This document shows positions 16,602 to 56,887 of a DNA stretch of 64,000 nucleotides, one piece after another; within the stretch, counting starts at the first letter, position 1; each line of letters begins with the position of its first letter. Under the pieces are notes generated by a model, which made no database searches, was not told where the DNA came from, and worked only from the letters and a program-made list of their open reading frames with translations. The position numbers were made by a program, and so were the translations under genes. The stretch is from positions 1,241,001 through 1,305,000 of the forward strand of contig CALZFC010000004.1 in assembly GCA_945643635.1 (NCBI GenBank), written 5' to 3'. This DNA comes from Allodiplogaster sudhausi. Lineage: Eukaryota > Nematoda > Chromadorea > Rhabditida > Diplogasteridae.

Positions 16602-16619
16602 TTCTTCTGTGCAGGAATG

Positions 16620-19865: not shown

Positions 19866-22800
19866 AAGAAAGAGAGAAAAGCGAGGGAAAAAGAGAGAAA
19901 GTGAGAAGAAGAGAGAGAAAGAGAGAAGGAGAGGGAGATAGGACGAGAGCGAGAGAGAAGGAGAAAGAGAGAAATAGCCTCCGACCTTGTGATCTAGAAG
20001 CGACGCATTCACGAACGTCGTCGTCCCGTTCGTCGTTGCCCCGTGCATCTGGTGGATGTGGCCAAAGACGTGGTATCTAAAGAATTATCATTTTTCATTT
20101 AACATTAAATGCATTCATGAAAATATGTAAATATCTAAACGAAAATAATAATTAATGAAAATAAGAAAAATATGCATATATCTATGTTTAAGAAAACTTC
20201 TTATTCTTATTAAATTATTTTCTAACATAAGTTCATGCTTGTAGATTAATCGTTTTTTTGAAGAAGAATAATGCATTTAACACGGACACCCTATTTTCAA
20301 TGTGCATACTCTATTACACTCCAATTATGCATTGGTACTTAATATTTGATCTGACGCAAAGAACCGGTGCATTTATTGCTTGAAAGAATGATAAATTGCT
20401 AGACGAAAGGCAAATTTTGATTCGGCCTCGATATTTTTTCCGTTGAATATAATTATAATCAACAGAAGGAATAGTGTGCGTATGCATGCGAAAGTGCGTC
20501 ATAAGTGAGAGTCGTAAGATTAAAAAAACTTTATTCTTGAGCCAGTTTTTTTAGTGCGACTCTACCATACCGTGGCTTGACGCGCTTCTCGATGGTGTTG
20601 AGCAGCTCGGCACAGCCGGCCAGTACGCCGTCACACTTGTTCCACGCGTTGAAGTCACCGTGGCCTGGAGGGGACATGGAGTGGTGCTATCTCTTTCTAT
20701 CTCTCTTTCCATCTCTCTTTCTCTTCCTTTCTTTCTCTCCCTCTCAACTGAAGTGCAAGAAAGAGATGTGCATTAAAAGGGTATCTGCTTAAGAAGCAAA
20801 GAACGCATAGATTGCCGCCTACCGAGCGGCGGCGTGTGTGTGACGAGAATGTTGGTGTTGGCCGTGATCTGATTCCACTTGTGCAAGAGCTTCTGGCCGC
20901 GCGGCCTGTAGAAGGAGTAGCCAGGCATCGGATGCCATGGAGCGCCGTAGATCTTGATGCCGAAGAGCTGGAAGGAGAGAGATCATTCAGCGATTTGTGT
21001 ATTGATTTAAATGATTGGTGTATTGATTGTTTTTAGGGATTTTGCGTTGAAAACACCTGTTTTGTTGGGTTTTTTGCGCAAAGATATAATTTATTCGTTT
21101 TGTCGCTTTACACATCCGACACCAGCCATAAGAACGAAAGACAACAGTTCTCGGTTGCCAAACCTCGACTTGCCGATCGCACAAGTAGATGCAGTTGGAG
21201 AGCAGCTCGTAGGCCTTGTTGATGCCTAGCACGTTGAGTGCCGCCTGCTGCCGTTCTGTCATCTCCTCGCCGTCCTCGAAGCCGAGCTCGTGATTCCCAG
21301 CGATCACCACCTTGTACTTGTGCGGCAGCTTGCCTGAAGTATAGATTATTTTTAGAGATGAAAAATGAAGAAAGTCACTAATTCACACATATAATTTTTA
21401 CAATTATTGAATTTAATTTGAGAATTCCCATGTATAAATTGCAATGTACGTTTGCGGTTAATAAGTAAAAAAAAAGACTTCGCAGCTTTTCTTATTTAGG
21501 AATTACGATCAAAAGAAGAGGTCAGAAAGGCAGTGAGAGAGAGAGAATCAGCAAGAGAGAATCAGAGAAGGAGAGAATAAGAGAGACAGGAAATGCTGAG
21601 ATCAAGAATTATTTGATCTAACATTGAGAATCTTTATTAATCATGATCATGCCAATTGTGTGCTTTGTTGCCGTTTATGGATATTCAGGTGGTTTTGCGT
21701 TCTCGTCAAGTTATATATGTGTATTAGTGGGATGAAATATTCGATCAGTCTGGGAAGCGCGTCGCGATATCGATTTCAGAACATGTCTAACTACTCCATA
21801 CAACCGGCAGTTCTGTTTGATGGCTGCCTAATACACTTGTTATTATTGTCGTCCATTCTGTCTCTCTCCAGTCACGGTAAGCCAAAGAATTGGCGCGATG
21901 CCTCAGTGAGTTTCTGCTCTTCCGCTTTCTTGCTCTCTCTCTCTCTCTCTCTGTCTATTTTTCTCTTTGTATCTTTCTTTTTTCGCTTTCGCTCTCTCTC
22001 TCTATCTCGATTTATCTCTCTCTCTCGCTCTCTTTTTGAAGTGTTCTCGACACCACTCTTCGAGTGTTTGTTCGTCGGATCGTGAGTGTTACACTTTTGG
22101 AATTGAAAAAGATTGGCAATAATTTTGAAGATTTCAATTGAATGCCGCGTTCAAGAAGAGTGGCTCTCGAATGGCAAGTCCCTTCATTCCCATTGCATTC
22201 TCAAAGAGAGACATCGAGTGAACTGCTGTGAGAGAGAGCGATACAGAGTGAGAGAGTGAGATATGGAGAAAGAGGGAGATATATAGAGAGAGCGAGACGG
22301 AGAGAGAGAGAGTGGGAGAGAACGATAGAGAGAGGGAGAGAGAGAGAGAGGGAGAGAGAGAGAGAAAGAGTGGGAGAGAGCGAGAAAGTGCGATACAGAG
22401 TGAGGGAGAGAGAGAGAGTAAGAGGGAGAGAGAGAAAGAGGGAGAGAAGGAGAGAGAAAGAGGGAGAGAAGGAGAGAGAAAGAGAGAGAGAGAGAGAGTG
22501 AGTGAGAGAGAGAGAGAAAGGTACCAGGCATGCAATCAGGCCGACCGGACCGGTGCTGACCCACCGAACTCATGCACACCATTTGCAAGGACGCAGAAAC
22601 CACACATGTTGTAACTGAACAATCACTTCGTTCGGCGAACATGTCCGCCGATCTTTTAGTCGGCAAGCAGAGAAAGAAGAAGAGAGAGAGAAAGAGCTAT
22701 AGAGAAAATGAGTAAAAAGGAAACAGAGCATTCAGAATAGCGCCTGAATTGTAGAAAGGGAGCGAAAAGGCGCGGAGAAGAGACCTGACATGAGGGATAA

Positions 22801-23156
22801 CCAGGAAATGATGATAGCAAAATGAAACATAACCATGAGGACAAGAGGGATGTGTGCCGTGTCCAATTTTGTTGGGCGTTGTAAAGAAAAACCAATAACA
22901 AATCAATGTATAAATAATAAATTACAACCGAGAGGAGATTTTAATTTTTTAAATATCGTTTCAGAGCAGAAAAAAAGTAGAAAGAAACCGACCGATTTCG
23001 GCGTTAAATTTGATGACTTCACCGACGTCGCCGTAATTGGTGAAATCGCCAGCGTGGATGAGGATGTCTCCGTCGGGGATGAGGGAGAGCACCTGAGAGA
23101 GAGAGAGGGAGAGAGTGAGAAAGAGAGAGAGAGAGAGATGGAGGGAGAGAGAGAGT

Positions 23157-23206
<50 letters not shown>

Positions 23207-24031
23207 GAGAAAGAAATATCCAACTTCGTCCATCTTCTCATGCGTGTCCGAGATGCAGACGACGCGCACCTTTCTATCGGATATCGGGCTATCTAGTCTG
23301 AAAAAAAAAGAATTATAATAGCGACGACAAGTGAATCTCTACTCTTTCGTTCTCATTTACCCTTTTCTGTGCTTTCATACTCATTTCTACTCTTTCCTCG
23401 TATTTCTAGGTCACATGTTTTTGTTTTATGGAGAAAGGCGCGGAGAGATGAGAAATCTTCGCAAGAAATGGACGCGGAGGCAGGCCTTTTTTGAATTGAC
23501 ACGCAACGATGTTCGCAAAAGAAGCAGATGACAATGAAAGAGAGAGAGAGGAGATACAATCTTATGTACAAGAAATGTTGCGCATGCGTATTTGAAGAAA
23601 TCGAGGAACTCGAGAACGGAAAAAAGAAGAAAGCGACTATAATAAAAGGGAAATCTGACTGGTTAGTAGGCATAAAGTTTTTTTTCAATTTTGTTATTAT
23701 ATAATATTATAAATTTCCATATTTTCAGGCCCTATTCTCTTAAAGTCTCAATCTGTCGCTCTCCCATTGTCTCATTTTTTTGCTCTCATTCAATTTCAGC
23801 TACCTCTCTATGCTCATCCCCCCCCTTCCTCTAACCCACTCTCTCTCTCTCTCTTGCTCTCTTCCAACACACACTCTCTGTCTCTCTTTCTCTCTCTCTC
23901 TATCTATCTTTTTCTACTTGCCTTAGTGTCTTGGCTGGCTCGCAGACCCTTCCCTGTCGCTGATACTTCCTCCAGCAGTCGATCGGCTTGGCCGAGAGCG
24001 GATCAACGTGCACGATTGCTCCGCCGTCCAT
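19647..24031 (-). CDS. Metallophosphoesterase domain protein, MPPED1/MPPED2 type
   Basis: Eight coding exons join in phase: about 23922-24031, 23224-23295, 22975-23092, 21158-21333, 20820-20968, 20568-20665, 19978-20078 and 19647-19722. The protein starts MDGGAIVHVDPLSAKPIDCW. The metal-binding motifs occur in order: CISDTHEKMDE, AGDFTNYGD, VIAGNHELGFED, ILVTHTPPLGHGDFNAW and HVFGHIHQMHG. It ends AGKTKEDFL with TAA at 19647-19649. All five calcineurin-like motifs are intact, so a working two-metal phosphodiesterase or phosphatase is expected. Mammalian and worm relatives hydrolyse cyclic nucleotides weakly in vitro. The first intron has a GC donor (CTAAG|GCAAGT). Several introns are filled with GA/CT tracts. 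One runs directly into an acceptor (CTCTCTCTCAG) and so serves as its polypyrimidine tract. Confidence 0.9.
22215..22520. repeat. (GA)n-rich tract in a metallophosphoesterase intron
   Basis: Nearly pure GA with scattered GGA and CGA interruptions over about 300 bases. Opposite-polarity CT tracts lie at 21938-22035 in the same intron, so the transcript could fold back on itself. All six frames give Arg-Glu or Ser-Leu low-complexity peptides, which are not genes. Confidence 0.85.
23095..23216. repeat. (GA)n tract directly 5' of an acceptor (sense CT)
   Basis: In the sense of the metallophosphoesterase gene this is a CT run of about 120 bases. It ends CTCTCAG at the exon that encodes the AGDFTNYGD motif, so the microsatellite is part of the splice acceptor region. 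Confidence 0.8.
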
Positions 24032-33638: not shown

Positions 33639-34315
33639 GTCTCACACTTCTGTCCGCGATCTATTTAAAATCACATCACTATGGCCATTAGCAAACATAC
33701 CAAACACCATGTGAGTGTTTGGACAAACAGACAACAAACGTGTACAAGGGCCATTATCATGGCGATTTCAGGGCCCATTAGACAAGAAGGGGCGACGAGA
33801 CCGCAGGTGAATGAGATCAATCAATTGTAAGTAAAAGTTCAATTTAAGTAAAAGTACGAATGTTTGTATGTACATAGATGACTAATAAAAAAAGAAGATG
33901 AATTTAATACTTTAAAAAATCAAACATCGTCAGACATGTCGGCATGCGATAAATGGCCAACACATGACTGATCTACTGTAGATGACAAGTGGATTTTTTT
34001 TCAGTTTGAAATGCCCATTTTGACACGAATGTACATATGTATGTATGTATACGGAGACATCTCTATGGCTGTTCTATGTCAACAACACATGACTGATCTG
34101 CCGTAAATGACATAAAATGGTAATGCAAAAATAAACGAGCACTGCATACGTAGATCATGCATTGAGAGAAAAAAATGAAATTAGAATGTTGTCTTGGGCG
34201 GATCGGGCCCGTTCTCTTCGTCGCTCTTCATGCCCAATGTGGAGGCAAACACAATCTATCTGCGGCATCTTGCCGACGCAGTACAACAGTCATCCACGGA
34301 CAAAATAGGCCCATT
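33300..34315. other. Non-coding sequence ahead of the CT array
   Basis: CT tracts near 33340-33450 and 33600-33640, then AT-rich DNA. The word AACACATGACTGATCT occurs twice (about 33959 and 34085), a small direct repeat. No exon was found. Confidence 0.4.
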
Positions 34316-36600
34316 TCTCTCTTTCTCTCTCACATTCCCTCTCTCTCTCTTTCTTGTTCTATCTCTCCTCCCTCCTCTCCTTCTATTTCTCTCTTTCTCT
34401 CTCACATTCCCTCTCTCTCTCTTTCTTGTTCTATCTCTCCTCCCTCCTCTCCTTCTATTTCTCTCTTTCTCTCTCACATTCCCTCTCTCTCTCTTTCTTG
34501 TTCTATCTCTCCTCCCTCCTCTTCTTCTATTTCTCTCTTTCTCTCTCACATTCGATCTCTCTCTCTCTTTCTTGTTCTATCTCTCCTCCCTCCTCTCCTT
34601 CTATTTCTCTCTTTCTCTCTCACATTCCCTCTCTCTCTCTTTCTTGTTCTATCTCTCCTCCCTCCTCTCCTTCTATTTCTCTCTTTCTCTCTCACATTCC
34701 CTCTCTCTCTCTTTCTTGTTCTATCTCTCCTCCCTCCTCTCCTTCTATTTCTCTCTTTCTCTCTCACATTCCCTCTCTCTCTCTTTCTTGTTCTATCTCT
34801 CCTCCCTCCTCTCCTTCTATTTCTCTCTTTCTCTCTCACATTCCCTCTCTCTCTCTTTCTTGTTCTATCTCTCCTCCCTCCTCTCCTTCTATTTCTCTCT
34901 TTCTCTCTCACATTCCCTCTCTCTCTCTTTCTTGTTCTATCTCTCCTCCCTCCTCTTCTTCTATTTCTCTCTTTCTCTCTCACATTCGATCTCTCTCTCT
35001 CTTTCTTGTTCTATCTCTCCTCCCTCCTCTCCTTCTATTTCTCTCTTTCTCTCTCACATTCCCTCTCTCTCTCTTTCTTGTTCTATCTCTCCTCCCTCCT
35101 CTCCTTCTATTTCTCTCTTTCTCTCTCACATTCCCTCTCTCTCTCTTTCTTGTTCTATCTCTCCTCCCTCCTCTCCTTCTATTTCTCTCTTTCTCTCTCA
35201 CATTCCCTCTCTCTCTCTTTCTTGTTCTATCTCTCCTCCCTCCTCTCCTTCTATTTCTCTCTTTCTCTCTCACATTCCCTCTCTCTCTCTTTCTTGTTCT
35301 ATCTCTCCTCCCTCCTCTCCTTCTATTTCTCTCTTTCTCTCTCACATTCCCTCTCTCTCTCTTTCTTGTTCTATCTCTCCTCCCTCCTCTTCTTCTATTT
35401 CTCTCTTTCTCTCTCACATTCGATCTCTCTCTCTCTTTCTTGTTCTATCTCTCCTCCCTCCTCTCCTTCTATTTCTCTCTTTCTCTCTCACATTCCCTCT
35501 CTCTCTCTTTCTTGTTCTATCTCTCCTCCCTCCTCTCCTTCTATTTCTCTCTTTCTCTCTCACATTCCCTCTCTCTCTCTTTCTTGTTCTATCTCTCCTC
35601 CCTCCTCTCCTTCTATTTCTCTCTTTCTCTCTCACATTCCCTCTCTCTCTCTTTCTTGTTCTATCTCTCCTCCCTCCTCTCCTTCTATTTCTCTCTTTCT
35701 CTCTCACATTCCCTCTCTCTCTCTTTCTTGTTCTATCTCTCCTCCCTCCTCTCCTTCTATTTCTCTCTTTCTCTCTCACATTCCCTCTCTCTCTCTTTCT
35801 TGTTCTATCTCTCCTCCCTCCTCTTCTTCTATTTCTCTCTTTCTCTCTCACATTCGATCTCTCTCTCTCTTTCTTGTTCTATCTCTCCTCCCTCCTCTCC
35901 TTCTATTTCTCTCTTTCTCTCTCACATTCCCTCTCTCTCTCTTTCTTGTTCTATCTCTCCTCCCTCCTCTCCTTCTATTTCTCTCTTTCTCTCTCACATT
36001 CCCTCTCTCTCTCTTTCTTGTTCTATCTCTCCTCCCTCCTCTCCTTCTATTTCTCTCTTTCTCTCTCACATTCCCTCTCTCTCTCTTTCTTGTTCTATCT
36101 CTCCTCCCTCCTCTCCTTCTATTTCTCTCTTTCTCTCTCACATTCCCTCTCTCTCTCTTTCTTGTTCTATCTCTCCTCCCTCCTCTCCTTCTATTTCTCT
36201 CTTTCTCTCTCACATTCCCTCTCTCTCTCTTTCTTGTTCTATCTCTCCTCCCTCCTCTTCTTCTATTTCTCTCTTTCTCTCTCACATTCCCTCTCTCTCT
36301 CTTTCTTGTTCTATCTCTCCTCCCTCCTCTCCTTCTATTTCTCTCTTTCTCTCTCACATTCCCTCTCTCTCTCTTTCTTGTTCTATCTCTCCTCCCTCCT
36401 CTCCTTCTATTTCTCTCTTTCTCTCTCACATTCCCTCTCTCTCTCTTTCTTGTTCTATCTCTCCTCCCTCCTCTCCTTCTATTTCTCTCTTTCTCTCTCA
36501 CATTCCCTCCCTCTCTCTTTCTTGTTCTATCTCTCCTCCCTCCTCTCCTTCTATTTCTCTCTTTCTCTCTCACATTCCCTCCCTCTCTCTTTCTCTCTTT
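34316..36600. repeat. Pyrimidine-only tandem array: 72-base unit in a 434-base higher-order repeat
   Basis: A 72-base unit (CACATTCCCTCTCTCTCTCT at its start, then TTCTTGTTCTATC and TCCTCCCTCC) is repeated about 31 times. A variant unit with CACATTCGAT recurs at 34547, 34981, 35415 and 35849, exactly 434 bases apart (five 72-base units plus one of 74). Each variant is preceded by a unit with CTCTTCTTC in place of CTCTCCTTC. The last block has the CTTCTTC change at the expected place (36283) but not CGAT. One strand is almost purine-free, so stop codons cannot form and three overlapping frames stay open for over 750 codons. Confidence 0.95.
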
Positions 36601-37300: not shown

Positions 37301-40300
37301 TTATACAAATCTCGTAATGGACTCCTTGGAGAGATGCACGGGCGAGTAGGGCGTGGCGGCTGTCGCGGCAAGCGAATAGCAACCTCCGCCATCCCTGCGA
37401 ATCACGGCGCCCGCGCCCGCCACCGACGAGATCGACACGGCGTCCACCGAGAAACCGCGCCAGTTCACGGGCGGGCCGACTTCCGTCCACTTTCTGAAAG
37501 GAGCAAAGTATTAATTAATATTTAATAATTTAATTTTTAAAATAATCTCCATAAAATGCTTATTCAGTAGTATGCAGGTTATGATTATGGGGGATTTTTT
37601 TAAAAGAATGTTACATAATTAATTTTACCTTATTTTTTACAAACAACAAGAAAAGTAATATAAAAATATTTATGTATACCTTTGCGCTTTGGTCGCGGCC
37701 GCTTGGCTGTTGCAGCCGGCCGCTGCGGCAGCGGCAGCGAGCGCCGGAAGCGAAGCGCGACGCGTGAACGCTGAGAACTTCTTCTTCTTCTTGAACACGA
37801 ATCCTGCAAGGCAGAAAAGGGTGAGATAAATATATATACATGTAAGGAAGTATAAAATGCTATAAATACTTCTCTTTTTCTCAGGATTATTCTCTCACTC
37901 TCTTTATTGCTCTTCCCCTCTCTCACTCTGTCTATCTCTTTCTTTCTCCCGTACCTCACCTTTACCATGCCCTTTCTCTTCTCTACCCTTCCCTCCCTCC
38001 CCTCTCAATCCGCCCGAAAGCAGCCTGGATTAACCTTCTCGCCCAGATATCACCAACAGGCACGCTCGCGCCCTCGCTCTATGCAAATTAGGCGATTTGC
38101 ATCTTGAGTCTGATCTCCCTCTTCGCCTCCTCATTTTCCTGCATCGCTCGCATGCGCGAATTACTCTCCTTTCCCCCTACCTTGCAAAATATGACTGCCA
38201 GAGATTATTCTTGCTTAACTAATTCACTTTTTATCTCCTCAAGCAAAGTTCGTTATAACGTGCTGCTTCCCTCTTCCTTTGCAGAATGCAATAGATGCGT
38301 TTTCGAGAAAATGTGTGGCCTCAGCACCGTACTTGTGCATTCAAAGCCGCCCTGATCTCATCGTGAGAGGATATTGCCCTAGAGATTAGTTTACTGATTG
38401 CAAAACGCGCAATCAGTCAACTAATCCATCGAAAGCCTGGTGTGCACACTAGAAACTAGGAGATCATCTTTTCTCCTAGTTTCTAGTGTGCACCTGGTGG
38501 AGATGTAGGATGAAAGTTTTGAAATCTGATATCCGGGTTCGAAAGATCACCCTGCACACTTTGTCTGCACTAATTCTAATCTCACAAAAAATCCCTTTGT
38601 TCCTTTCATCTTCCATTTCTTTATTGGCTCTTTCTCGGCTGGCTTGGTCTTTCTGTCTCTCTCACTCTCTCTCTTTCATACACTCTTTCTTTCTCTCCTC
38701 TCTTTCACTCTCTCTTTCTCTCTTTCTCTCACTCTCACCATTAGCAATGTGGCAGTTCTGGCTGGACGACTTGCGTCCATAGAAGTCGACGATGAGCGCA
38801 GCATTGTGCAGCGAAGAGAGCGCGTCTGCCGTGAGATGCAGCCGACTTTCGGTGAGCCCAGCCGCTCCGCCGCCACTCCGACGCCAGCCTCCGCCACTGC
38901 GGCCACTGCCATCGCCGCGGCCAACCGTCCAGTACGAAGTGTGGAGAGGACCTTGAAATAGGAAATGTTAAAATTATTATTATTTTTTTCTGTCAATCTT
39001 AAACGTACATGCATGTGCAGCTATTACAGTAATTATAGTATCTAGCTTGGCGGGAGAAAAAAAAATTCAAAATCCGAACCAAAAATGCTGAGCATAGACG
39101 TGTAGAAGAAGACGACGGCGATGAGCGAAATGGCCGGAATGAAGAGCAGAAGTGGAACATCCTGCAGGAAGAGGAGAGATTAAGAGATGAAATAAAGTGC
39201 GCATACATAATTCTGCTTTCAATGAGTCAAACCAAGTGGAACATCCTGAGAGGCGAGATAAAGAATAATAAAGAACACTTATTTCTGTTCCAGTGAATCA
39301 ACAGAGGTGGAACATCCCGAGGAGAAGAGGAGAGATATAGAAACAAATAAAGTACACTTATTTTTTGTTCCATGAAGTAAGCATATCAAATGAAGACGAG
39401 GAGTGGCCAGAAGTCGGATTCAAAAGAAGGATTTTCACGCATCAGCAGAGAGAGAAAAAGAAAGCAGCTTATTTGGTTCATTTAAAGAGCGTTACAGCTA
39501 AAGATGTACTACGCACTTTGACCACTGAATCACAGAGCAAAAGTGTAACGGCCACATAATCACCAATAAATATCCCTTTGAGGCTACCATAAAAAGTAGA
39601 AATAAAGTAATAAGGGATAAGTTAAAAGTGTGAGAGTGATTCTTAAGAATTCCTACATAACGGAGAGCAATATGCGTAGATTAAAAGCGCAGAGAGGAAA
39701 AGTATGAAAGTGCTTACCGTTGAGAGTGAAAGGAAGGGCGCGGCAAAGGCGGCAGCTGCCGCAGCGGGCGCGGCCAGCGGAAGGAGTGCCGCGTCGAGGG
39801 CATCAAAGGACTTGGCCGGCTGCGCCCGCTTGCGAGAGGCGAGGAAGAAGGAGCCGAAGCGAATGGCCGAGTCGACCGGAAGGGCGACGGACAGAAGGAG
39901 AAGCCATGGAGCTAGCGTAGAGGAGAGCGAGCCGCGGAGAAGCTGAATAAAGCGTTTCACTTTTATTTGTATTTGCTTTTCACAAATAATTATATTAATA
40001 TTAAAAACTAGTACAAAACACATTTAAAAAATTATGTACATATATTTAAAAAAAATAGAAAAAAAATCACTGACCATAAAAGCAATAGTCGCCGAAAAGA
40101 CAAAGATGGCGGTCGCGAATGAGATCATGGCGAGAATAAAGTTTCTGGAAAGATGGAACTAAAGAAGAAGAAAAAATATCGAATTATTAATCATTTTTTG
40201 GTCAAAATAGTGGCAACAATTGTCAATTGCAAACTTAAAGTATAAAAGAACAAATAAGTGAATAATCAATGTTTACCTGCAGAAGAGGAGCAGAGCAGCG

Positions 40301-43300
40301 AGAGCGACGACCAGGCCGACCACGCACGTCCAGAGCAGCAGAGCAAGCTGAGCGCGGTCCTGAAAAGGAAGGAATAAAATGTCTTTCAATTAACGATTTA
40401 TTCCGCAATTTATGAGTAATTTAGATTTCTCTCTCACCTATGAAAATCATACAGTACTACATACATACATATTTTTAGAAAGTGTAAAATTGGAAATAAT
40501 CATGTTTGCACTTGTCATGTTCTTAGAATCTTATCCTCACTAATCATTTGCGTAAGTGTGCATGAACGTATTTTCATAGTTTGTTGCAACATCATAAATC
40601 TTCCTCTCTCTCCATTCGTCAGTGCTTGTGATTAGAAGCTGATAGCTGAGCTTGGAACAGTCGTCACAAATCTTTTTCTTTTTCATTCTCTCTCTCTCTC
40701 TCTATCCTTTTGCCTCACTTCCCTCTCTCAATGATGTTATTCCACTTCACATTATCCGATTAAATCTCATATCTGCGTGCGCGAAAGGCGCTTCTCTCGT
40801 TCCTCGCATGAAGAAGCTCGACCGCAACAAACAAGGTTCCTTTGCTCTCCTTATCTTATCACCTTCTCTCTCACCTTCACTTTCGTTCTCTCTCTCTGTC
40901 TCATTCTCTCTAACTCTCTCTATCTCTCTAACTCTCTCTCTCTGTCTCATTCTCTCTAACTCTCTCTATCTCTCTAACTCTCTCTCTCTTTCTATCTCTA
41001 ACCATTTTGTCGATTCCCGTCTTCTGCGCAAGCGAGCCATAGTCGACGACGCATGCAGTGACGAACGTCCTCAAAGAAGAAGACTTTGGCTATCACTCAT
41101 TCTTTCTCTGCTTCTCTGCCATAGTTTCTCTCTCTCTCTCTCTCTGTCTAGATAATCCTTACACCCTCTTCTCTTGCTCTCTTCGTCTCTTCTCTCTCAA
41201 CTCCTTCTCCCAGAATAGAGAAAGTGCGTCAAGAGTCAGAAATATATCGTGGAAAAGCTCGCAAGTAGAGCATGTGGTCCCTAATTGAAAGATGTTGACT
41301 TTTCGTGAATAGCAGACATTCGAGATGGGTCTTCATGGCTAAACTAGTCGGATACGTAAAAAGAAAAGGACGAAAGGTCGCGACTAGTCAGGAGGAGCTC
41401 TTAGGCAAAGGCCTTTTCCGGCAGATGGACATAAACACAAAAATATACACTTCTTGTTGACTTCGTATATTTCGAGAGCGAAAAGGTTAGAAAGCGGATT
41501 AGACAACTATATCTCTCTTTTTTGACGTCTATCCTCGTTCGACTGTTTTCATCTCGAATAAGTATCCAAATGCCGTATTGAAGCGAAAAAAGGCAAACAA
41601 GCATTCCATCTGACATTATATATTAATCTAATCGCAAACATATTTTTTTTCTTGGTTTTTTTTGGGAGCTATTGAAGGAGCTCTTGAAAAGGTGAGAGGG
41701 AAATATGAGACAGTTATGTGTATTTTTTTTTAGAAGTGTCCGATTCTACATAAGTCAAGGATCATTACTATGAAAAGCAGAGAATGTGGCTGACCAAATA
41801 ACAAAAGAGAGACAGAGAAATGAGACTGACCAGATAACAACGACGCCGAGTGCGAAGAGGACGGCGATGCAATGGCCGCCACGCGAGATGGCCACTCGGA
41901 TGGCGCGCGCGCCAAAGTGCACGACGTAGATGGTGGACTCGAAGAAGAGCGCGCGCAACTGCTGCCACAGGCCCCAGTCGCAGTTGGAAGTGGAAGTCGA
42001 TGACGTCATGTAGTGATGCGCCGGAGCCCATTCCTACATACATATAATTAAGCATATTTATGTATCTTTTTAAACATATTTTTATTCTCATTTTATTCAA
42101 TTTATATTATAATATTTTAATGTTTTTTACATTTTTTATTAAAAAATAAAACACCAGAAATAATACGGAAGATGTGGGAGCCACAGGGAAGTATGTAGTT
42201 AGTATGAAAAATAGCTTCATGGCTAATATCCAAAGCGCTCGCCCACCGTATTTTCTTTCACTTAAAACTCGATCTGACTTTGCGATAGAGATAAATGATA
42301 AGATTATAGCATAAAAAGTCCCATGCCGAAAGCGACATTCCTGAGATGTAATTATCTAATTTTTTTTTCTTCTTCTACTTCCTTTGCAAGTTCATAAGAA
42401 CTCTATTTAAAAAGAGATCAAATTAATCGCCCTCGAAATAGCGGGATAATTAGGAAGCCGTTGCTATCTATGGATATCGCTGCCAGGAAAGATCTGTAAT
42501 AGCCGTCCGGAAACGAAATTAGAACCCTTGCTTCATTGCAGGAAGTCTATAAGGAATTTGGAATTTTCAGAAAAAGTACATGCATATATTAATTAAGAAA
42601 TTTGAGATGTTATACGGTAGGAAATAAAATAAAAATGAAAATAATTAATAAAAAATATTTACTTATTTATTTCGCTTACCGCGCTTCTCCTTTGCCGGAG
42701 CACAAAGAGTGCGGGAAGAGCGAGAGAAGTCGCAGGGAGAAGAACGGCAGAGCAAAGAGCGACAGCCGAGGAGAGAAGGCGAAGAGAGCCGCCCGACGGT
42801 AAAGAATACAGACAGGCCTGGAGCGAGAGAGCGAGAGAGAGAGAGAGAGAGAGAAGAGAGAAGAGAGAGACAGAGACAGAGAGAGAGAGCGAGAGAGAGA
42901 GAGAGATTGTAGAAAGGAGTAAAAGTAAAAGTTTGAAAGACAGCGACTAAACAGAAAAATTAAGAAAGAAATGATCTACGGATCCAATAAAGTAATAAGG
43001 GCAGAGACTGAGTAGAGAGCAGAAGAGAGGAATGATCTCCGGAATCAGTAAAGTAATAAGGACAGAGAGTGCATCTAGAAGATGGAAATGATCTACGGAT
43101 CCTTGACCACCAGATCTGCAGAGATGTATGAGATGTCTGTCCAGGGAAGTGCGTAAAAGTACTAAACGGAAGAAAAATGAAGGATCACAGAACGAAAACA
43201 CAAGAAATATGCATATATGTATTATGACAGAAGAAGTCGTCTGTGTTTGTCTAGACACGCACTACGGATATCCGAGGCCGGAAGATTAATGTAAAGTGCG

Positions 43301-43376
43301 AATTGACTCTGGTGCCTGGAGCGAATTTAAAGGAAATAGATGAGCTATAGAGAGACATCGAGAGAGTGAAAGAAAC

Positions 43377-43407
<31 letters not shown>

Positions 43408-44685
43408 GTTAGAGACAAAGAGTATGGGAAAGAGAGAAAGAGTGAAAGAGTAAGAGATGTATGATACCAGTGAGATGAGAAGCTGCGCGAGGCAGGGCAG
43501 AAGAAGAAGCGGAACGCTGCGCTCGATAGAATTCTGAAGAAGTCGCGTGAGCGGCGCCTCCATCGTGCTCTTCCTTTAAGAAATTATAAAATTAGGAATT
43601 GATAATGCATAAGATTTATTTGATACACATACTTGGACTTCAATCAACTTGGTTAGACACATCTGCTTATATGAGCAAATAGTTCGGCATAGAACCACCT
43701 ATGCTCTTTTAAGTCGATTTTATTTTGTAAAATGGAATTTTAATTTTTTCTGCACATTTTTTTTGTGTGTAAAATTTTTAAAATAAATAAAGAAAATACC
43801 TCGATCGCTTCCAGCTTCTCCTAAGACAGAGCACATTCGAGAGGGCGGTCGTCATGACAGGCATGACGATAAAGGGAAGAAGAGAGAAAGAGAATGAAGA
43901 GGAGCAGAGAAGCAGAGTGAGCAGGAGAGAGTGCAGGAGGAGCACAGCGGCCGAGACGGCGACGGCGGCAGAGACGGAGAGGACGCCGGCGGCAAGCGAG
44001 GCGGCCGCCGACGGGATCAGGCAGTAGAGGACTGCAGGAGGAATTTGTATTTCTCAGAGGAGGAATTCGCATTCTTTCAGAGGAGGAATTTGTAATTTGA
44101 ATTATATCATTTTTTTTGTCACGTTGTGAAGAATAAACAAATATTTTAACAACTTCGATAGATGCTCACCGATTCCTTCAGTGCTCAAACGCGATTCTTT
44201 GTTGGTCGTGGTCGAAGTCGCATTTGGCGCCGTGTCAGGTTGTGGCTAGAATGAGGCGGCTAATTATAAGCAATCATTGGGTAGTTAGTATTTGGGAAAA
44301 GATTGTATTTGAGAAGAAAAAAAGAAAGTCGTCTAGGATGACTGACCGGCAGAAGCTGAAGTGTGATGGCGGCGGAGATGAGGAGAGCGGAGCCGACGAC
44401 ACATGCGACCAGGCAGCCGGCCGCGTGCGACAGCACAAAGGGCGCGAATCTGAAGAGAGAGAGTTACTGTAATCGGTATAGAGAGATTCAGTAATCTACC
44501 GAGAGATACTGTAGCAGGTATTTCAAAAGTTCGCATCAAAAGCATACAACATGTACAAGCCCTTTGTTATCAAATTTAACATTAAGAAATCGGCAAATAT
44601 GTATTTAGCACTTACGCATTCATATGTATACATATAAAACTCATAAAAAAATACAAACAAACCTTTTCGCGATGATTGCTTTCAT
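37301..44685 (-). CDS. Divergent Patched-type (RND superfamily) multi-pass membrane protein with very short loops
   Basis: Fourteen exons join: 44663-44685, 44347-44449, 44170-44245, 43800-44031, 43468-43573, 42680-42817, 41803 (or 41831)-42033, 40277-40359, 40075-40144, 39718-39942, 39080-39161, 38739-38951, 37680-37803 and 37301-37493. About 11 hydrophobic helices result. The middle resembles a sterol-sensing domain: LLPFIVMPVM, then NSIERSVPLLLLPCLAQLL and LALPALFVLRQRR. The second half resembles the Patched C-terminal half: LLLLSVALPVDSAIRF, then FIPAISLIAVVFFYTSML and SIFGP. Known relatives have about 250-300-residue loops after helices 1 and 7. Here the first is about 25 residues and the second is essentially absent. 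The TM4 acidic pair of Patched is replaced (VMPVMTT), while one Asp remains in the later helix. The cytosolic tail is Gly- and Lys-rich and ends KESITRFV. Family assignment is by eye. Confidence 0.55.
38384..38493. other. Two adjacent hairpins inside an intron
   Basis: The first hairpin pairs 38384-38401 (GATTAGTTTACTGATTGC) with 38409-38426, with one mismatch. The second pairs 38442-38463 (GTGCACACTAGAAACTAGG...) with 38472-38493, perfect over 22 bases with an 8-base loop. They lie in an intron of the Patched-like gene between its exons 12 and 13. They could be a small-RNA precursor or element remnants. Confidence 0.8.
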
Positions 44686-46171: not shown

Positions 46172-49100
46172 CTACGTGGCCATCGACATAATTGCTGCGA
46201 CCCTTCGCGTTGCAGCAACCTCATCGTTACGGACATCGACTACCTCAACTTCTGAAAAGAGAAAAAAATTACAGTTTAATTACTGCTAGTCCTTTTAAAG
46301 CTAAGATGCTTTACCGTTTTCCAAGAGTAAAAAATTCTGCGCCTATTCAACTTTGACCGAGAAGGGCCTAAGTAGGCGGTGTGGGGCTGCAGACGACGAC
46401 TACTGGCAGTTAGTATATATGGTTGATGGACTTAAGCAGTTGCCTGCCACCCTACAGAATCACTTCCACATCTCGTCGTGCACTCCTCCAAATTAATCTG
46501 ATATCGCTAATTAAGCGATAAGCGCACGTTGCACATACTTTAATGGCGACTAAACCCGACTAATGATGTCTTCGTAGCATTTTACATAGGCAATTTACAG
46601 CATCACGTAAGTGAAGTAGCGGTAAGTGTTTTGACCGCAGACACGGGGGAGGACATACTTCCGCCCTCAGGCGAACCCAGACGCATGCTTTCAATTTCAC
46701 TTCCGTCGATTGGTAAACCTTCGAGCCCATTTAATAACTCTTCTCTTTTTACACGGAAGCATATGGAGGAAAAGGATTCAGGATGAGTTAACCTTAATTT
46801 GGGCGTACCTTTGCTTAACTTAACCTTAATTTAGCTTAATGGGAAAAGGACGCTGACCTCTCGCCGACGTCGTCGATCGGTCCATCTGGATGATGTCGCT
46901 CTTGGCGTCCGAGTTCGCTGCGGCGGCAGACGGCATCAGTGTTCCCGTCAGCATTACAGCCGTCGATGCGCCCGACGTCACGGGGTGGTCATCATACGGT
47001 AGCGAAGTGATACTCTGAAGAACATCAGAACTATCGGATTGGTGAGAGAGGATATGAGAGAAGGGAAGAGAGAGAAGAGGGATTCACTGTCAATATACAT
47101 ATAAAGTATACCCGGACGCGGAACGATTCAGGAGAACGAAATCATTGAAGTAAAAAGTAGGAAGATAGGAAAAAGTAAACGCGAACCCCATCATCGTAGT
47201 TCGGATCGCGGTCGATATACGGTGCGACCGTAACCGGTGGAGGAGGATGCTCCCTGTACATGGAGCCACGGCCAGACTCGACGATGACGCCCGGTGGAGG
47301 AGGAGGAGGGTGTTCGTGGTAGGAGCCACCGCTGACAATGATGCCCGGAGGAGGCGGAGGTGTTCCGCCGATGATTCCGCCGCCACCAATTCCACCTCCA
47401 GGATAGACGCCACCGCTCGGCTGAAAAGGAAATACGTTGAATACTAATCCGTAAAATACTAATTGTAAGATAATGGTGCAATTAATGAGGCATCATTACG
47501 TTTTAGGTTTGCCAGAAAAAAATTTTTTTTAAGTGTAAAAGATTTTTTTCTGACACCATTTCTGTCCTGGTGGTTTCTATATAAACGGAAGCTATTTTAT
47601 GACTGAGAAGCGAGAACTGTTGATTTTCGTCAGTCAGGCGGTTCCGTTACTAATGGGAAATAAAACAAAGATCACGATGTGTATGTAGATATCTCGTAGT
47701 TTATTTCACTACTTGCCATCTTCTTCGAAACATCTAGAGCTTTAGGCAAGCTTATCAGTTGCATGCTCATCGTTCGATTCGTCAGTTTAAGCCATCTGAA
47801 GCTGCGATCATCTTGCTGACATTCTTAGGTATCGAAATGGCGCCGAGAAAGCTACTATATCAATGAATGAATATTATGAAGAGAGCGTGGCAAATTCAAA
47901 TCTTCTTTTGTACTTTTTCATCTGCTGACTCATCATAAGTCTAAGCTTCTGACTTCTTTTTTCTTAATATGAACGCAGACGGCGAATTACTCATTTACCT
48001 ACATACATATATACATACATATGCACAACATCTACGCTCGCTCTCATCACAACTAATCTCAATGTCTTCGTAATCTGTTTCATCTGCCCGTAACCAATTC
48101 TCTTGATTCTTCAACTTACTCTAACCCTTCATTTTGAATAGCTCACACGATCACTTTTTTGGCATTCATTAGATTACACACCGGCTCTCTCTTTCTCTTT
48201 TGCTCTTTTTTATATTTCTATAATTTTGCGCATAATCTATTTCCTCCATTATTCAACTCTGTAAAATATCTGGAGAATGCTGCCAAGATGAATATCTGCT
48301 TTGAACCATCACATCAACAGAAAATGTGCATCATAAATAAGGCGTCATCATTTTGAGAGTTGATTATTTGCTCCACTCTAGATTATTTAATTTCTCTCAC
48401 TCTCTCATTCTCTAGCTCTCACTTATCACAAACGTCAGCGTGAACTTGCGAACATTTTCTTGTTTATCTGCTTATGAGAGCGCGTCTCGGATGTCATTCA
48501 GGTTCTCAGAACTATGAGAGAAGCATCCAAAATGTGTTTGTAAGCTTCAGTCCAGGTTAGGCGGATAAGCTGCGCAGCTTCAGTGTGAAAAGAATGCTTT
48601 TGACGCAAGACGAAGAGGGGAAAACATGAACACTCTTCTTCGCTTTTAAGCGCTCTCTTGAACACTAGAAGTGCGCAAGAATATGAAGAAAGATACACAT
48701 AACAACACCAGAACGACGCCATCATGAATATTCAGAGCTTCCATACGAAAATAAGCTTGACAAGAAATGCCAAGATCCTTTCCGACTCGTACACAACACA
48801 GATTATCCACCAAAGGAAGCGAAACATTTTCCCACAAACATCTCTGACTCTCGCTCTCACTCACTCTCTCTCTTCTCTCTCGCTGGATTTGCCTCCTCTC
48901 TCAAGCTAAATTAAGAGTGGTTCTTGGGGGGTCAGAGATTTACGAGGCGCTTTTTTTCTATCCCTCTCTTCATCATACAAGTCGAAAGGTAAAGGGCACA
49001 AAGTGGAGAAAGAAATCGAAAGCTTGGCTATGTCTCTCTTTTCTCTCTCCCTCTTTCTTTTCTAATCTTGGCCACGCACTCGTTTTGGAATTGTGTGTCT

Positions 49101-51506
49101 GGTTATTTGAGGATTTGGCAAAGATGAGGAAAGAAAGAGATGCGCTCATAATTTGCAGACATATGCAACTTATTAATATCTCAACAGATTCAATTTGGAA
49201 TGCTGAGATTGCATACACGTGCCATGTATGTACATATTTTCTGTTGGCTATTTTTCAAAAGTTCTGCCTAAACCATGTTCCGTTAATTGACTAATACATA
49301 CACACTCCACTTAAACGCGCAAAACGAAAGTGTGATTGTCATTGATTAACATTTAAAGGACTGTGATTACCGAAAAATTATGAGATTTCAAATTGCCGCA
49401 GCCCTTATGCGCGCGAGCTATTTTCAATTATCAGTATGTGCGTCCTGCAAAATAGCGCAAGAACGAGAGAGTATGTACTCCCAGGGTGAAAGCTAGAATT
49501 CAGATCGCATTTTTTCCAATGATCTCCTGTAAATGCACCACGTTGCTTCTAGTATTGCACTATTATTAGCTGAATATATATATTTATATGTATATCGCTC
49601 CCGCGCTCTCTATCGCATCAGCTGAAGTTGCCGCTCATTTCTACTAACTCTAAAACACAAAACCACCTGTTCATTCATTGAATGGAATCTATTTCACTGA
49701 TCTCTTTCGCATTGACGCACATTTATTTGAACATTGTTTTGACAATACGTTATAGCAAGGAAATCATTAATTAAAAGTTTTAAAATATTAAAATAAATAG
49801 AACAATAAAAATGAGTATTTGAAGAAAAAAATAAAATAGAAAAAAGTAGTCCTAATTAGACTGACGATATAGCCAATGTCGCGAAGCACGCCTCCCTCAC
49901 GTACATAATCAGAACCACCGCCACCGACAATGACGTCATCGCCAGTCTGATAGCCTCGCGCGGAAGCGGCGACGTAGCGAGGCCCTTCAGAGACGACAAG
50001 AGGAGAACGCGAGTACCCTCCACTCGGCATGTACGCTCCGTACTCGCCGCCCTCAAGGCAAAACAGAATTTTTGTCTTCTGTCAAAACAGAATGTCATTT
50101 TAAATTTTATTTTTAATTACTTAAATTCTTATGAAAATTCTCACAATGAGCGCGAACATAAATAAGAAGAAAATAATCATGAGTGGAAAATGAATGCGTC
50201 AAAGAAGTCATTAGGCATTATCTCGTGCTTGTTTGGAGAAAAACAATGGGAGTCATGGGTGGCTGCATTGTATGTGTGTACTCACGTACATACATAGATA
50301 TATTAAAAAGAACCTTGACAGCGTAGCTGCTGCCTCCTCCTCCTCCTCCTCCAAACAGACTTCTCGCATATCCGCCGCCGCTCAGATACATGCCATACTC
50401 GCCAGCACGGCCGGCAGCGCCAACGTATCCGCCGCCGGCGTCCGTTTGATAGGCGCCCGCGCCAGGGCCAGCGTAGCTTCCGCCGCCGCCGACAACAACT
50501 GAACCGCCGCCACCGCCTGCGAACGGACTGCGTGCATAGCCACCTCCCGGCAGGTACATGCCATATTCGCCGCCGCTAGAGTATGACGATACAGAGGAGC
50601 TAGCATAGGAGGCCCCAGCACCAGCGTACGAGCCCCCACCAGAGCTTGCATAGGAGGCCCCCGCGCCAGCGTACGAGCCCCCGCCAGCCGTCCGATAGCC
50701 AGCCGCGTCCCGCAGCGCCGACGCGACAGCCTTACGGTAGATGGCGCGGTAAAGAGCGCTCTCATAGCCATCAGGTCGCGCGTAGCCGCCGGGGCCTCCA
50801 CCAGTAGGGAGCGAGTAACTGCCGCCACCGATAATCGGTGCGGGACCACCGATGATCGGGCCGGGACCACCGATAATCGGGCCGGGACCACCGATGATTG
50901 CTCCGGGAGGAATTATTGGCGGCGGTGGCCCGCCGACATACGAACCCGGCCCACCGATTATCGTATCGGGCACACCGAAAGATGGAGGAGGGGCGTAGGA
51001 GCCGCCAGGAACGGCGTAACTTCCTCCACGGCCTCCGGGACCGGCGTAGGAGCCACTCCCGATATACGAGCTTCCTCCGCCGACAGGGTACCTGAATTCA
51101 ACCTTACTTAATTTAAAAAAATATATATTATTAACTCGAAAATATCTTCATTTTCTTTTAAAAAAATATTGTAATTGTTCAATAGTACTCGAAATTTCTT
51201 TTCAAAATATCCATTGGTTTTTTGTTATTATCGAACAGCATGTCGCTTTACTAATAATCCTAATTTGATAAAATTATATCAAATTAGCAGCTTTTTTTTT
51301 TTAGAAATAAAGAACAATACTTGGAAGTTTCTGTTATAGATTTAAAGAATGTATTTTCGAATAGGAATTTATAAACAAAATCTATATTTTAAAAAAAATC
51401 GTTACCCGCCGCCACCGCCGACATACGAGCCAAAACCACCGCCACCGCCTGCATTAGCCGAGGCAATCAGTAGCGAAAGCAGAGAGGGCAGCAACCGCCA
51501 CTTCAT
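46172..51506 (-). CDS. Secreted Gly/Tyr/Pro-rich repeat protein
   Basis: The start is at 51506 with a good signal peptide (MKWRLLPSLLSLLIASANA). Exons are about 51406-51506, 50311-51087, 49866-50090 (acceptor uncertain), 47190-47420, 46862-47012 and 46172-46244, ending AAIMSMAT with TAG at 46172-46174. Tandem motifs are GGGSYAGAGASYASS, EYGMYLPGGGYARSPF and IIGGPGP. A Pro-rich exon (HEHPPPPPPGVIVESGRGSM) follows, then a soluble Ser/Asp-rich tail. One conserved patch without Gly (ESALYRAIYRKAVASALRD) sits among the repeats. Phases agree at most joins. The start context TTCTCAG|AATG suggests trans-splicing to a leader. Such proteins are often cuticle, eggshell or Gly-rich secreted peptides; the function is unknown here. 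Confidence 0.7.
49352..49473. mobile_element. MITE-like element family 1, decayed copy
   Basis: TTTAAAGGACTGTGATTACC followed by GAAAAATTATGAGATTTCAAATTG-like sequence matches the left half of the copy at 62161-62359. The right terminus is missing. It sits in an intron of the Gly-rich gene. Confidence 0.55.
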
Positions 51507-54339: not shown

Positions 54340-56887
54340 ATGCCCAGCGTCTTCCTGCTACTCGTGCTGCTTAATGTGGTGTGTTCTTGTGGATGTTACG
54401 GGTTGAATTGATACGGTTTTTGAATGTCACGGATTTCGGTTACAGATTTGATTGGATCATTACTTATAAGTTTCAAATTCATTATTTTTAAGACTTGATT
54501 GGATCATATATTACATATAAGCCTCAAAGGAAGCTTCAGAATCATTTTTTCTCTCCTTTGATTGCGCATATTAAGTTTCTTATACTTTCTAAAGCGCCTG
54601 TAGTCATGCTTTTTTAAAGATCAACAAATAGTGAAACTCAACAGTTGATAATAATTTGTAAAAAAAATCACTAGAGAATAATAATTAGTAAAAATCACCA
54701 GATGACATCATCCTCTGCGGTGAGCAGCAGTCCGCGCGGTCGCCACCGCCTTGATCTCTGCCACTACTACGCCGTACTCGGTAAGCTCGCCGACCACCCA
54801 GAGTGCGCTCGGGCCATCGGAGGACCTACCGGAGGTGGAGGAGGAGGAGGAGGAGATGAGGGAGAGGGCGACGAGGAGAAAACCACCACCCCCGCGCCAC
54901 CCAAGAAGAAGGCTATCCCGCTCTGTAGCAGGTCAGAGGATGGCGGGCTGAAGATGGGCAGATTGAGGTTACTATACACTGAACAGCCCGAGGTAGCTTG
55001 ATTCATTCTTTTTTTCTCTTACTTTTTTGTCATGCTGAGTAGGCATGCTCGTTGCTCACTGCAGAAAGAATAGCTATGTCAAGCGCCTTTTAGAAAGCAG
55101 CATTTTGCTTTCCTAGTCGCTGCAAATGTCCACAGACTTACATTCATTTAATAACTTTTCTATAGTTTTTCTTTCATAAAAAGAATATTAATATCAAAGA
55201 AAGAAAGAGAATCGATAAAAGGAAGAGTCTTGCAAAAGGACGCGATCTAAAAACTAGAAAAAAAGAGTATGTTTTTCAGCGCTGTCGCACTGACGCAATG
55301 CTCGGCCGACTCGGTCGCTTGCCCCGACTCGGGCCAGGTGTGCATGCAGACCGACGGCAACAAGTGCTGCCAAGAGGCGACCACAGGTACCCCCTTTTAA
55401 AGGACGCCAAACTCACAATTGAATTCGCGCCTGTTGTCCTGAGAATGTGTGCAATTTAGAGATACGTCGACACTAAAATTGCGCAAATAGACTTCCGTTG
55501 GGTTGCGTGCTCCTTAAACGTTGAGCTTAACCAGCGAATCATTTGAACAGCCTACGAACGGTAAAAAAATTGAGAATAGAAAAAAATAATTTACATGCTA
55601 AAAATACAGAACTATTATAATGAAATAATTCTTTTTTTTTAAGTTAAAATAAAAATACAACTCTCAAGGCATTCCCGTCTCGACGATCAACGCCAAGGTC
55701 GGCTCTTGCCCGCGTCCGCTCGGCATTCACGTTCTTCAGGTTCTTTTTAATCAGAGTAGCCGACGACTACTCCGAACCCCCCAACGAAAACAAGAAACAG
55801 ATTTTTTTATCTTATTATTGTTTACTAATCCTATAATATAAGCCAACCAAGTGGTTTTCATCACCAATCAGACGATATTATGGCTAATGAACCCAAGATA
55901 AACTGGTACTGGCATCGTCTCTAATACACTTATTTACGAGGGTTTATAGATTGCGAATTTGATCGATTATCAATCGATAATTGTATAGCGTTGATCTATC
56001 TGCACAAATGAGCGAGCTCTTGCCATGTTGAGGACCACACGCTCGGCTGCTGGTTCGACGCTGGCTGCCCGGGCATTCAAAAGTGCTGCCTCGAGCCGAA
56101 TCCCGTGACGCACTCCTCCACGAGGATCTGCAGAGATCCCGTCGGCATCGCTAGTTAGTCGTCTCTCTCACTATCTATCGTTCACTCTCACCCACTCACT
56201 CTCTCTCTCTCTCTTTCGTTCTCTCGTTGTCTCTATGTCTCTCCTTCTCCCTCTCATTCTTTCTCTTTCATTCTTTTTCTCTTTCTCTCTCTTTCATTTT
56301 CATAATCTATCTATCTCTCTCTCCCTCTCAGATTCCGGCGCCTCCATCTGCACGCTCCCCCTTGCGGTCGGCTCTTGCACCGCGCCCTCTCAACGCTTCT
56401 ACTACGACTCAGCGACCGGCCGCTGCAACCCGTTCACGTACTCCGGCTGCGGCGGCAACGCTAACAACTTCCAGTCACTCGCCTCCTGCCAGTCCACGTG
56501 CGGCACTGTTGGTGCGAATTTCGATTACTTCGTGTGTGCACACAAAGACACAAAAGAACTATGGGCACGCATATATTTATTTTATGAGCATAATCCCACG
56601 AATAAACGCTTACGATGGACTCACGCAACTAATATGCTTTGAATCGAGTGATATTTTAGGAAAAATGCAATAATAATAATGATATTAACAATAATCAATA
56701 TTCTCTCTTACATTCAGGTGTCCGCGGAACGCCCGCCTGCCCGTCGGACGCGAATGTCGGCCTGAACTGCCTGTACGAGCACGCGGACGCATGTTCGGCT
56801 GACTCAGACTGCCTGGGCAGAGAGCACAACGTACAGCCATCATGCTGCATGACGGCCTGCGGATACAAGATATGCTATCAGTACTAG
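54340..56887 (+). CDS. Secreted WAP-Kunitz-WAP protein, protease-inhibitor type
   Basis: Six exons join in phase into 229 residues: 54340-54380, 55280-55386, 55669-55739, 56033-56153, 56332-56511, 56718-56887. A signal peptide (MPSVFLLLVLLNVVAVALT) is followed by a short Cys module (CSADSVACPDSGQVC...KCC). A WAP domain (VGSCPRPLG...LGCWFDAGCPGIQKCC) comes next. A canonical Kunitz domain follows with Cys spacing C-8-C-15-C-7-C-12-C-3-C and the FTYSGCGGNANNF signature. A second WAP-like module (CSADSDCLG...SCCMTACGYKIC) ends the protein, with TAG at 56885-56887. Such proteins act outside the cell on serine proteases or in matrix and cuticle remodelling. The residue at the Kunitz P1 site (GSCTA) is Thr, not Lys or Arg, so trypsin is an unlikely target. 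CT tracts form the polypyrimidine region ahead of the Kunitz exon. Confidence 0.85.
54700..55001. other. GC-rich coding-like block inside intron 1 of the WAP-Kunitz gene
   Basis: The + frame from 54702 gives LDLCHYYAVLGKLADHPECA, then a Gly8 run and TTTPAPPKKK. The - frame is Pro/Ser-rich. Including it in the WAP-Kunitz mRNA would break the phase, while skipping it gives a clean signal peptide to Cys-module join. It could be an alternative first exon, a gene fragment, or unused sequence. Confidence 0.3.
55396..55517. mobile_element. MITE-like element family 2, copy 2
   Basis: About 122 bases starting TTTAAAGGACGCCAAACTCAC and ending GCGTGCTCCTTAA. It shares the TTGAATTCGCGC core with 32257-32397 and lies in intron 2 of the WAP-Kunitz gene, ten bases after the donor. 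Confidence 0.6.

What the first reader, a model, noticed from the sequence alone, without database searches (positions are those of the whole stretch)
37301..44685. Patched-type membrane protein stripped of its extracellular loops
Seen: an in-phase, mostly hydrophobic 14-exon protein. Known: Patched and related RND proteins carry two large extracellular loops after helices 1 and 7 that bind or conduct sterol, and an acidic pair in TM4 needed for transport. Here the first loop is about 25 residues, the second is essentially missing, and the acidic pair position reads MTT, while the later helix keeps Asp (ALPVDSAIRF). Inference: a membrane-core-only relative, perhaps a regulator or sterol sensor that no longer transports.
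Basis: partly seen in the sequence, partly recalled or inferred. Interest (0 to 1): 0.8.

Follow-up and report, generated by a model that had tools for sequence, protein, structure and literature searches.

The report
Loop-poor, Patched-like nematode membrane protein
A nematode gene encodes a many-helix membrane protein laid out like the membrane core of Patched-type lipid transporters but almost without their two big outside domains; two copies in the same genome show that selection preserves it, although descent from Patched is only weakly supported.

Summary
The gene is real. On the minus strand, 44685 to 37301, it has 15 exons (not 14) and 645 codons. The 14-exon chain breaks frame once; a missed 67-base exon (41069-41003) repairs it. 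An independent gene finder recovers the chain at 368.5 bits, against 18.6 on the other strand and at most 12.0 in 20 nulls. A 12-helix segmentation gives a 1+5, 1+5 layout with connectors of 25 and 18 residues; seven crude Patched-related models of the same genome have 128-233 after helix 7. Helix 4 has no acidic residue; Asp391 in helix 10 is the only one in the 12 predicted helices. Homology to Patched/RND is weak: no Patched or SSD profile hit, no database homologue; with hhalign each half beats shuffles only against its own half-profile, but several controls come close. Most likely it is a diverged, non-pumping RND-type core with a conserved tail. Loss of the helix-4 motif alone is ordinary among worm PTR proteins; loss of both ectodomains is unusual. 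I do not file it as Patched.

The parts
44663..44685 (-). Exon 1: ATG start, MKAIIAK(R)
   Evidence: ATG kept in C16 copy, indels upstream of it
44347..44449 (-). Exon 2: helix 1 with preceding RFAPFVLSH segment
44170..44245 (-). Exon 3: most of the first connector (residues 42-66, 25 aa, sequon N50-A-T)
43800..44031 (-). Exon 4: helices 2-4; T128-T129 (43852-43847, counted by hand) near the place of the Patched acidic pair
43468..43573 (-). Exon 5: linker after helix 4 and helix 5
42680..42817 (-). Exon 6: helix 6, ending FVLRQRRSA
41831..42033 (-). Exon 7: central linker and most of helix 7
41003..41069 (-).
   Evidence: 67/67 identical in second copy
40277..40359 (-). Exon 9: helix 8
40075..40144 (-). 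Exon 10: helix 9
39718..39942 (-). Exon 11: helices 10-11; Asp391 codon at 39873-39871 (counted by hand), Arg395 four residues on
39080..39161 (-). Exon 12: helix 12, ending SIFG|P
38739..38951 (-). Exon 13: C-terminal, presumably cytoplasmic tail, Gly/Ser-rich part
37680..37803 (-). Exon 14: tail with FKKKKKF basic cluster and Ala run
37301..37493 (-). Exon 15: end of tail, TAA stop at 37303-37301

Best explanation
A protein-coding nematode gene under purifying selection makes a 645-residue protein with about 12 membrane helices and a 175-residue tail, presumably cytoplasmic (gene and selection shown; helix count and topology predicted). The helices probably descend from the RND/Patched-related fold (1+5, 1+5 duplication; inferred, weakly supported), with both ectodomains reduced to about 25 and 18 residues. 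It most likely does not pump. Helix 4 has no acidic residue, the single Asp of helix 10 lies one turn from Arg395 and could be neutralised by it, and there is no ectodomain to receive or pass on a lipid (all inferred). The most likely role is a membrane-embedded sensor or scaffold: helices respond to membrane lipid or to a partner, perhaps a full-length PTR protein, and the conserved tail passes this to the cytoplasm (speculative).
For: Gene: coherent 15-exon chain, independent recovery, second copy with 15 of 15 exon lengths equal, its 14 introns GT-AG, dN/dS 0.082 overall and 0.036 in the tail. Layout: segmentation into 12 helices gives linkers 25, 2, 7, 27, 14, 60, 18, 2, 11, 15, 3, with 23 Lys/Arg in predicted inside segments against 7 in outside ones, tail not counted. 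Family signal: C half 16.6 bits against the TM8-12 profile (13 of 1000 block-shuffles reach it), N half 10.8 against the SSD profile (21 of 1000); hhalign matched pairs reached by 12 of 300 and 1 of 300 shuffles, crossed pairs by 111 and 233 of 300; the unguided C-half alignment places VD391 on the VD of the TM10 profile with two single-residue gaps. NPC1 block-shuffle z 2.5, 0.95% of 2000. Whole LacY scores 3.0 and 4.8. D391 is the only acidic residue in the 12 segments.
Against: No Patched, SSD or RND hit in Pfam and none in NCBIfam. Scores far below members left out of the profile (30.5-201.6 bits in 20 tests). PTCH1 block-shuffle z 0.87. Own halves z 0.08, though NPC1's own halves give only 0.71 and PTCH1's 3.0. 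Reversed N half scores 11.4 against the SSD profile, above the real 10.8; the C half also 11.4; reversed full length 13.3 against 17.6. Decoys come close: reversed LacY 10.3 and 11.5, LacY windows (18, forward and reversed) up to 10.5 and 9.1. Single shuffles reached 21.7 and 15.0 bits. Helix number was chosen from the gain curve; a 13th segment still adds 10.3 after 15.1 for the 12th. No expression data.
Confidence: 0.52

Rival explanations
1. An unrelated nematode polytopic membrane protein (about 12 helices, rich in Ala, Leu, Ser) whose spacing and one VD motif resemble RND by chance.
For: No Pfam or NCBIfam family for the full model, no homologue, profile scores close to those of reversed, shuffled and LacY decoys, own halves dissimilar.
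Against: Both matched half-profiles beat shuffles that keep helix positions and composition; with hhalign crossed ones do not; VD391 falls in register.
Confidence: 0.37
2. An ordinary PTR-type transporter whose long loop exons were missed because they are small, divergent or lie outside the modelled region.
Against: Of the 14 introns, a further single phase-keeping exon with acceptable sites appears in two only: best 9.9 in intron 5 (between helices 5 and 6, not a loop-bearing place) and -9.0 in intron 6; the finder, which allows any number of exons, adds none; the second copy keeps the same 15. The N-terminal side is less sure than the middle.
Confidence: 0.06
3. A decaying pseudogene of a Patched-related gene.
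For: Loss of ectodomains and of the TM4 motif.
Against: dN/dS 0.082; no exon length change while the intron alignments carry 120 gaps; 17 amino-acid changes against a random mean of 61.
Confidence: 0.02

Closest known systems
Patched-related (PTR) proteins of nematodes, RND superfamily
   Same: Predicted helices in 1+5, 1+5 order, long basic linker after helix 4, Asp in helix 10; a missing TM4 GxxxD/E motif is common in C. elegans PTRs (PMC3078328, passages)
   Different: Connectors of 25 and 18 residues; seven crude PTR models of the same genome have 128-233 between helices 7 and 8; no Patched profile match; conserved 175-residue tail
Patched (PTCH1) and NPC1
   Same: By eye: SV..V[DE] in helix 10, FGP-like end of helix 12, order of helices
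   Different: PTCH1 has 315 and 256 residues between helices 1-2 and 7-8 and GVGVDD in TM4
SCAP and other sterol-sensing-domain regulators (recalled)
   Same: A membrane domain that senses sterol and signals through a cytoplasmic part, the mode of action proposed here
   Different: SCAP has a five-helix SSD, luminal loops and WD repeats (recalled); no SSD Pfam hit here
DAF-6/PTR-7 of C. elegans
   Same: Works without a TM4 motif and with a dispensable TM10 motif (PMC3078328, passages)
   Different: A PTR-family protein; its loop lengths were not examined here

Membership tests
Patched / Patched-related (PF02460, PF12349) | Match to family profile above the curated cut-off | tested here: not met
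   No such hit for seven exon reads at E<=1, for halves and joined protein at E<=10 or for the 645-aa model at E<=10; a PTCH1 control hits both. PF02460 lists 105 places in the genome (150 of 158 candidates scored), none on contig C4
Patched / Patched-related (PF02460, PF12349) | Two large extracellular domains after helices 1 and 7 | tested here: not met
   25 and 18 residues; own-genome PTR models 128-233 after helix 7
Patched / Patched-related (PF02460, PF12349) | GxxxD(D) in TM4 | tested here: not met
   MPVMTTALSN, no acidic residue in helix 4; but absent from many worm PTRs too (PMC3078328)
RND superfamily | 12 helices as duplicated 1+5 | tested here: inconclusive
   Segmentation into 12 gives RND-like linkers, but 12 was chosen, a 13th is not excluded and the halves do not align with each other
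RND superfamily | Acidic residue in TM10 | tested here: met
   D391, kept in both copies, aligned to VD of the profile
RND superfamily | Sequence homology by profile | tested here: inconclusive
   weak excess over shuffles, half-specific with hhalign but not with hmmsearch; 10.8-17.6 bits against 30.5-201.6 for left-out members and up to 11.5 for LacY decoys
RND superfamily | RND fold | not testable with these tools
   Structure prediction takes only proteins that DNA gives letter for letter; a spliced protein was not submitted
Major facilitator (12 helices, few loops) | Match to MFS family profiles | tested here: not met
   No Pfam hit of any kind at E<=10 for the full model

The most novel reading that the evidence does not exclude
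A selected, ectodomain-less RND core: a Patched-lineage protein that has given up both lipid-handling domains and the proton relay and now works as a 12-helix membrane sensor or partner of full-length PTR proteins, signalling through its conserved tail.
Probability: 0.28. Interest if true: 0.75.

Novelty: new variant of a known kind. Interest (0 to 1): 0.5.

Why it matters
How Patched-type proteins work (pump, sensor or scaffold) is debated, and the ectodomains are central to the pump models. A natural, selected protein that kept the membrane core without ectodomains would show that the core has a function of its own and give a minimal system to test sterol sensing. Nematodes carry many PTR proteins whose roles are unclear, several without the transport motif.

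Tried and rejected
Rejected gene models: the plain 14-exon joining (frame break); a 5' extension to an ATG at 44880 (several gaps between the copies upstream of 44685); a longer exon 6 running into a CT repeat. I considered that helix 1 might really be helix 2, with helix 1 and its loop upstream; the finder, run up to 46800, adds no upstream exon, and another reading frame on the same strand ends at 46826.

Led nowhere: Pfam (one search gave only sub-cut-off DUF2852 at E 0.04 and DUF6343 at 0.12; only DUF5684 at 2.1; nothing), NCBIfam, PDB by sequence (two esterase chains at E 1.3), protein database (7998 candidates, none at E<=10; the query lacked exon 8, and low-complexity words may have crowded the candidate list), hhalign against vertebrate PTCH1 alone (its positive control failed too), Rfam. 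Literature. Of what they listed (nothing; 12 of 46), no title or abstract start describes a loop-less or ectodomain-less RND protein; beyond listings I saw only passages of PMC3078328.

Not settled: whether the C16 copy is an allele, a homoeologue or a segmental duplicate.

Rows dropped: of 20 own-genome Patched-related stretches modelled, 12 gave TM8-12 seeds and 8 gave SSD seeds; L009, L011, L013, L014, L019 and L026 were used in neither profile; several seeds were hand-joined to skip mispredicted inserts or missing exons. Seven models with both ends recognisable were measured.

After checking, odds were lowered slightly (best explanation 0.55 to 0.52, novel case 0.30 to 0.28, unrelated-protein rival raised from 0.33 to 0.37) because the LacY window and reversed-LacY scores had been left out.

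Full report
What is there. The gene lies on the minus strand. Joining the obvious exons gives coherent reading frames across every intron but one: exon 7 leaves in phase 2 while the next exon is read from phase 0. Scoring the single exons that join these frames gives one clear winner, 41069-41003, 67 bases, encoding TFVTACVVDYGSLAQKTGIDKM; the runner-up uses the same acceptor. With it, 15 exons make 1938 coding bases and 645 residues. A further single phase-keeping exon with acceptable sites turns up in two of the 14 introns only, the better scoring 9.9.

Is it more than chance. A separate dynamic-programming gene finder, using codons of other genes in the window and splice weights set from recalled nematode consensus, recovers the same 15 exons at 368.5 bits; it differs only in running exons 1 and 6 further upstream. 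The opposite strand gives 18.6, and 20 Markov versions of the region give at most 12.0.

A second copy and selection. It is a nematode by its neighbouring metallophosphoesterase: best named hit Pristionchus mayeri, 81% (approximate because the query was hand-joined). It carries another copy of the gene on contig C16, 2784504-2777268. All 15 exons have the same lengths, its 14 introns begin GT and end AG, exon 8 is identical, and the protein is again 645 residues. The copies are collinear over the 10 kb held, except that the 72-base satellite next door is much shorter there, so the copy is an allele, homoeologue or segmental duplicate. There are 89 substitutions and 17 amino-acid changes; random placement of the same substitutions gives a mean of 61 changes and a minimum of 49 in 500 trials, and 459 of the 500 create a premature stop. 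dS is 0.151, dN 0.0125 and dN/dS 0.082: 0.092 in helices, 0.112 in connectors, 0.036 in the tail. Introns are 92.1% identical over aligned bases with 120 gaps. The gene has been under purifying selection, and the short connectors are part of what is kept.

Anatomy. A hydropathy segmentation with 12 helices, a number chosen from the gain curve, places them at 17-41, 67-87, 90-110, 118-137, 165-183, 198-220, 281-302, 321-343, 346-369, 381-402, 418-440 and 444-469; a 13th would still add something, so the number is not sharp. The first connector is 25 residues with one sequon (N50), the second 18. The longest linkers follow helices 4 and 6, hold 8 and 7 Lys/Arg, and fit a cytoplasmic side. Helix 4 reads LLPFIVMPVMTTALSNVLCL. 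Asp391 in helix 10 is the only acidic residue in the 12 segments; Arg395 lies one turn on. The tail from 471 to 645 carries a poly-Lys cluster and is the most constrained part.

Is it Patched or RND. By formal membership tests, no. There is no Patched or SSD match, while PTCH1 as a control matches both, and none of the 105 PF02460 places listed for this genome falls on contig C4. Pairwise alignment with helix-preserving shuffles gives z 0.87 to PTCH1 and 2.5 to NPC1, where PTCH1 against NPC1 gives 3.7 to 18.2 by segment. I then built two profiles, TM8-12 (14 sequences) and SSD (10), from crude PTR models of the same genome plus PTCH1 and NPC1. The C half scores 16.6 against TM8-12 (13 of 1000 shuffles reach it) and the N half 10.8 against SSD (21 of 1000). 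With hhalign the matched pairs are reached by 12 of 300 and 1 of 300 shuffles, the crossed pairs by 111 and 233 of 300, and the C-half HMMER alignment has only two one-residue gaps and puts VD391 on the VD of the profile.

Results against. With hmmsearch the SSD profile scores the C half (11.4) and the reversed N half (11.4) as well as the N half, and reversed full length gets 13.3 against 17.6. Family members left out of the profiles score 30.5-201.6 in 20 tests; whole LacY scores 3.0 and 4.8, but reversed LacY 10.3 and 11.5 and LacY windows up to 10.5 and 9.1. I read this as weak support for common descent, at about 0.58, and not as proof.

What is ordinary and what is not. [quoted passage not shown] elegans have the motif in both TM4 and TM10, and DAF-6 works without it in TM4 (PMC3078328, passages). 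The shrinkage of both ectodomains is unusual: seven crude PTR models of this genome have 128-233 residues between helices 7 and 8, PTCH1 has 256 there and 315 between helices 1 and 2, NPC1 (recalled sequence) 242. Eight literature searches listed no title or abstract start that describes such a protein; the listings were partly capped and the library lacks most subscription journals.

Mechanism proposed. Without ectodomains, without the helix-4 acid and with the helix-10 Asp next to an Arg, directional lipid pumping is unlikely. A membrane-embedded sensor or scaffold that acts through its conserved tail, perhaps together with full-length PTR proteins, is the most likely role. Gene structure and selection are shown; topology is predicted; ancestry is weakly supported; function is inference.

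Noticed in passing
34313-36594: A 72-base CT-rich minisatellite, 31.6 copies, with a 434-base higher-order period, lies about 700 bases downstream of the stop codon; the C16 copy lacks most of it.
   Followed up: partly
38442-38493: A perfect hairpin of 22-base arms (GTGCACACTAGAAACTAGGAGA) in intron 13, not found in the C16 copy: possibly a small recent insertion.
   Followed up: partly
46826-47400 and 50218-51147, minus strand: Gly/Pro-rich reading frames upstream on the same strand; could be cuticle or eggshell structural proteins.
   Followed up: no
19900-23300, minus strand: MPPED-type metallophosphoesterase (UPF0046/C25E10.12 family), about 81% identical to a Pristionchus mayeri protein.
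   Followed up: partly
56109-56642, plus strand: A Kunitz inhibitor domain (Pfam E 3e-20).
   Followed up: no
39160-39350: Imperfect GGATGTTCCAC repeats at and before the acceptor of exon 12: the exon start seems to have been duplicated into the intron (seen in the sequence).
   Followed up: no
15573-16628, minus strand: A 351-residue open frame that looks coding but matches no Pfam family at E<=0.1.
   Followed up: no
2098-2373, minus strand: A Myb/SANT-like DNA-binding domain (PF13873, E 1.9e-05, above its cut-off).
   Followed up: no
G000, whole genome: Several Patched-family hits come in pairs on different contigs with near-equal scores (e.g. C347/C20, C56/C127; the C347 and C20 models are nearly identical), as in an assembly that keeps both haplotypes or homoeologues.
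   Followed up: no
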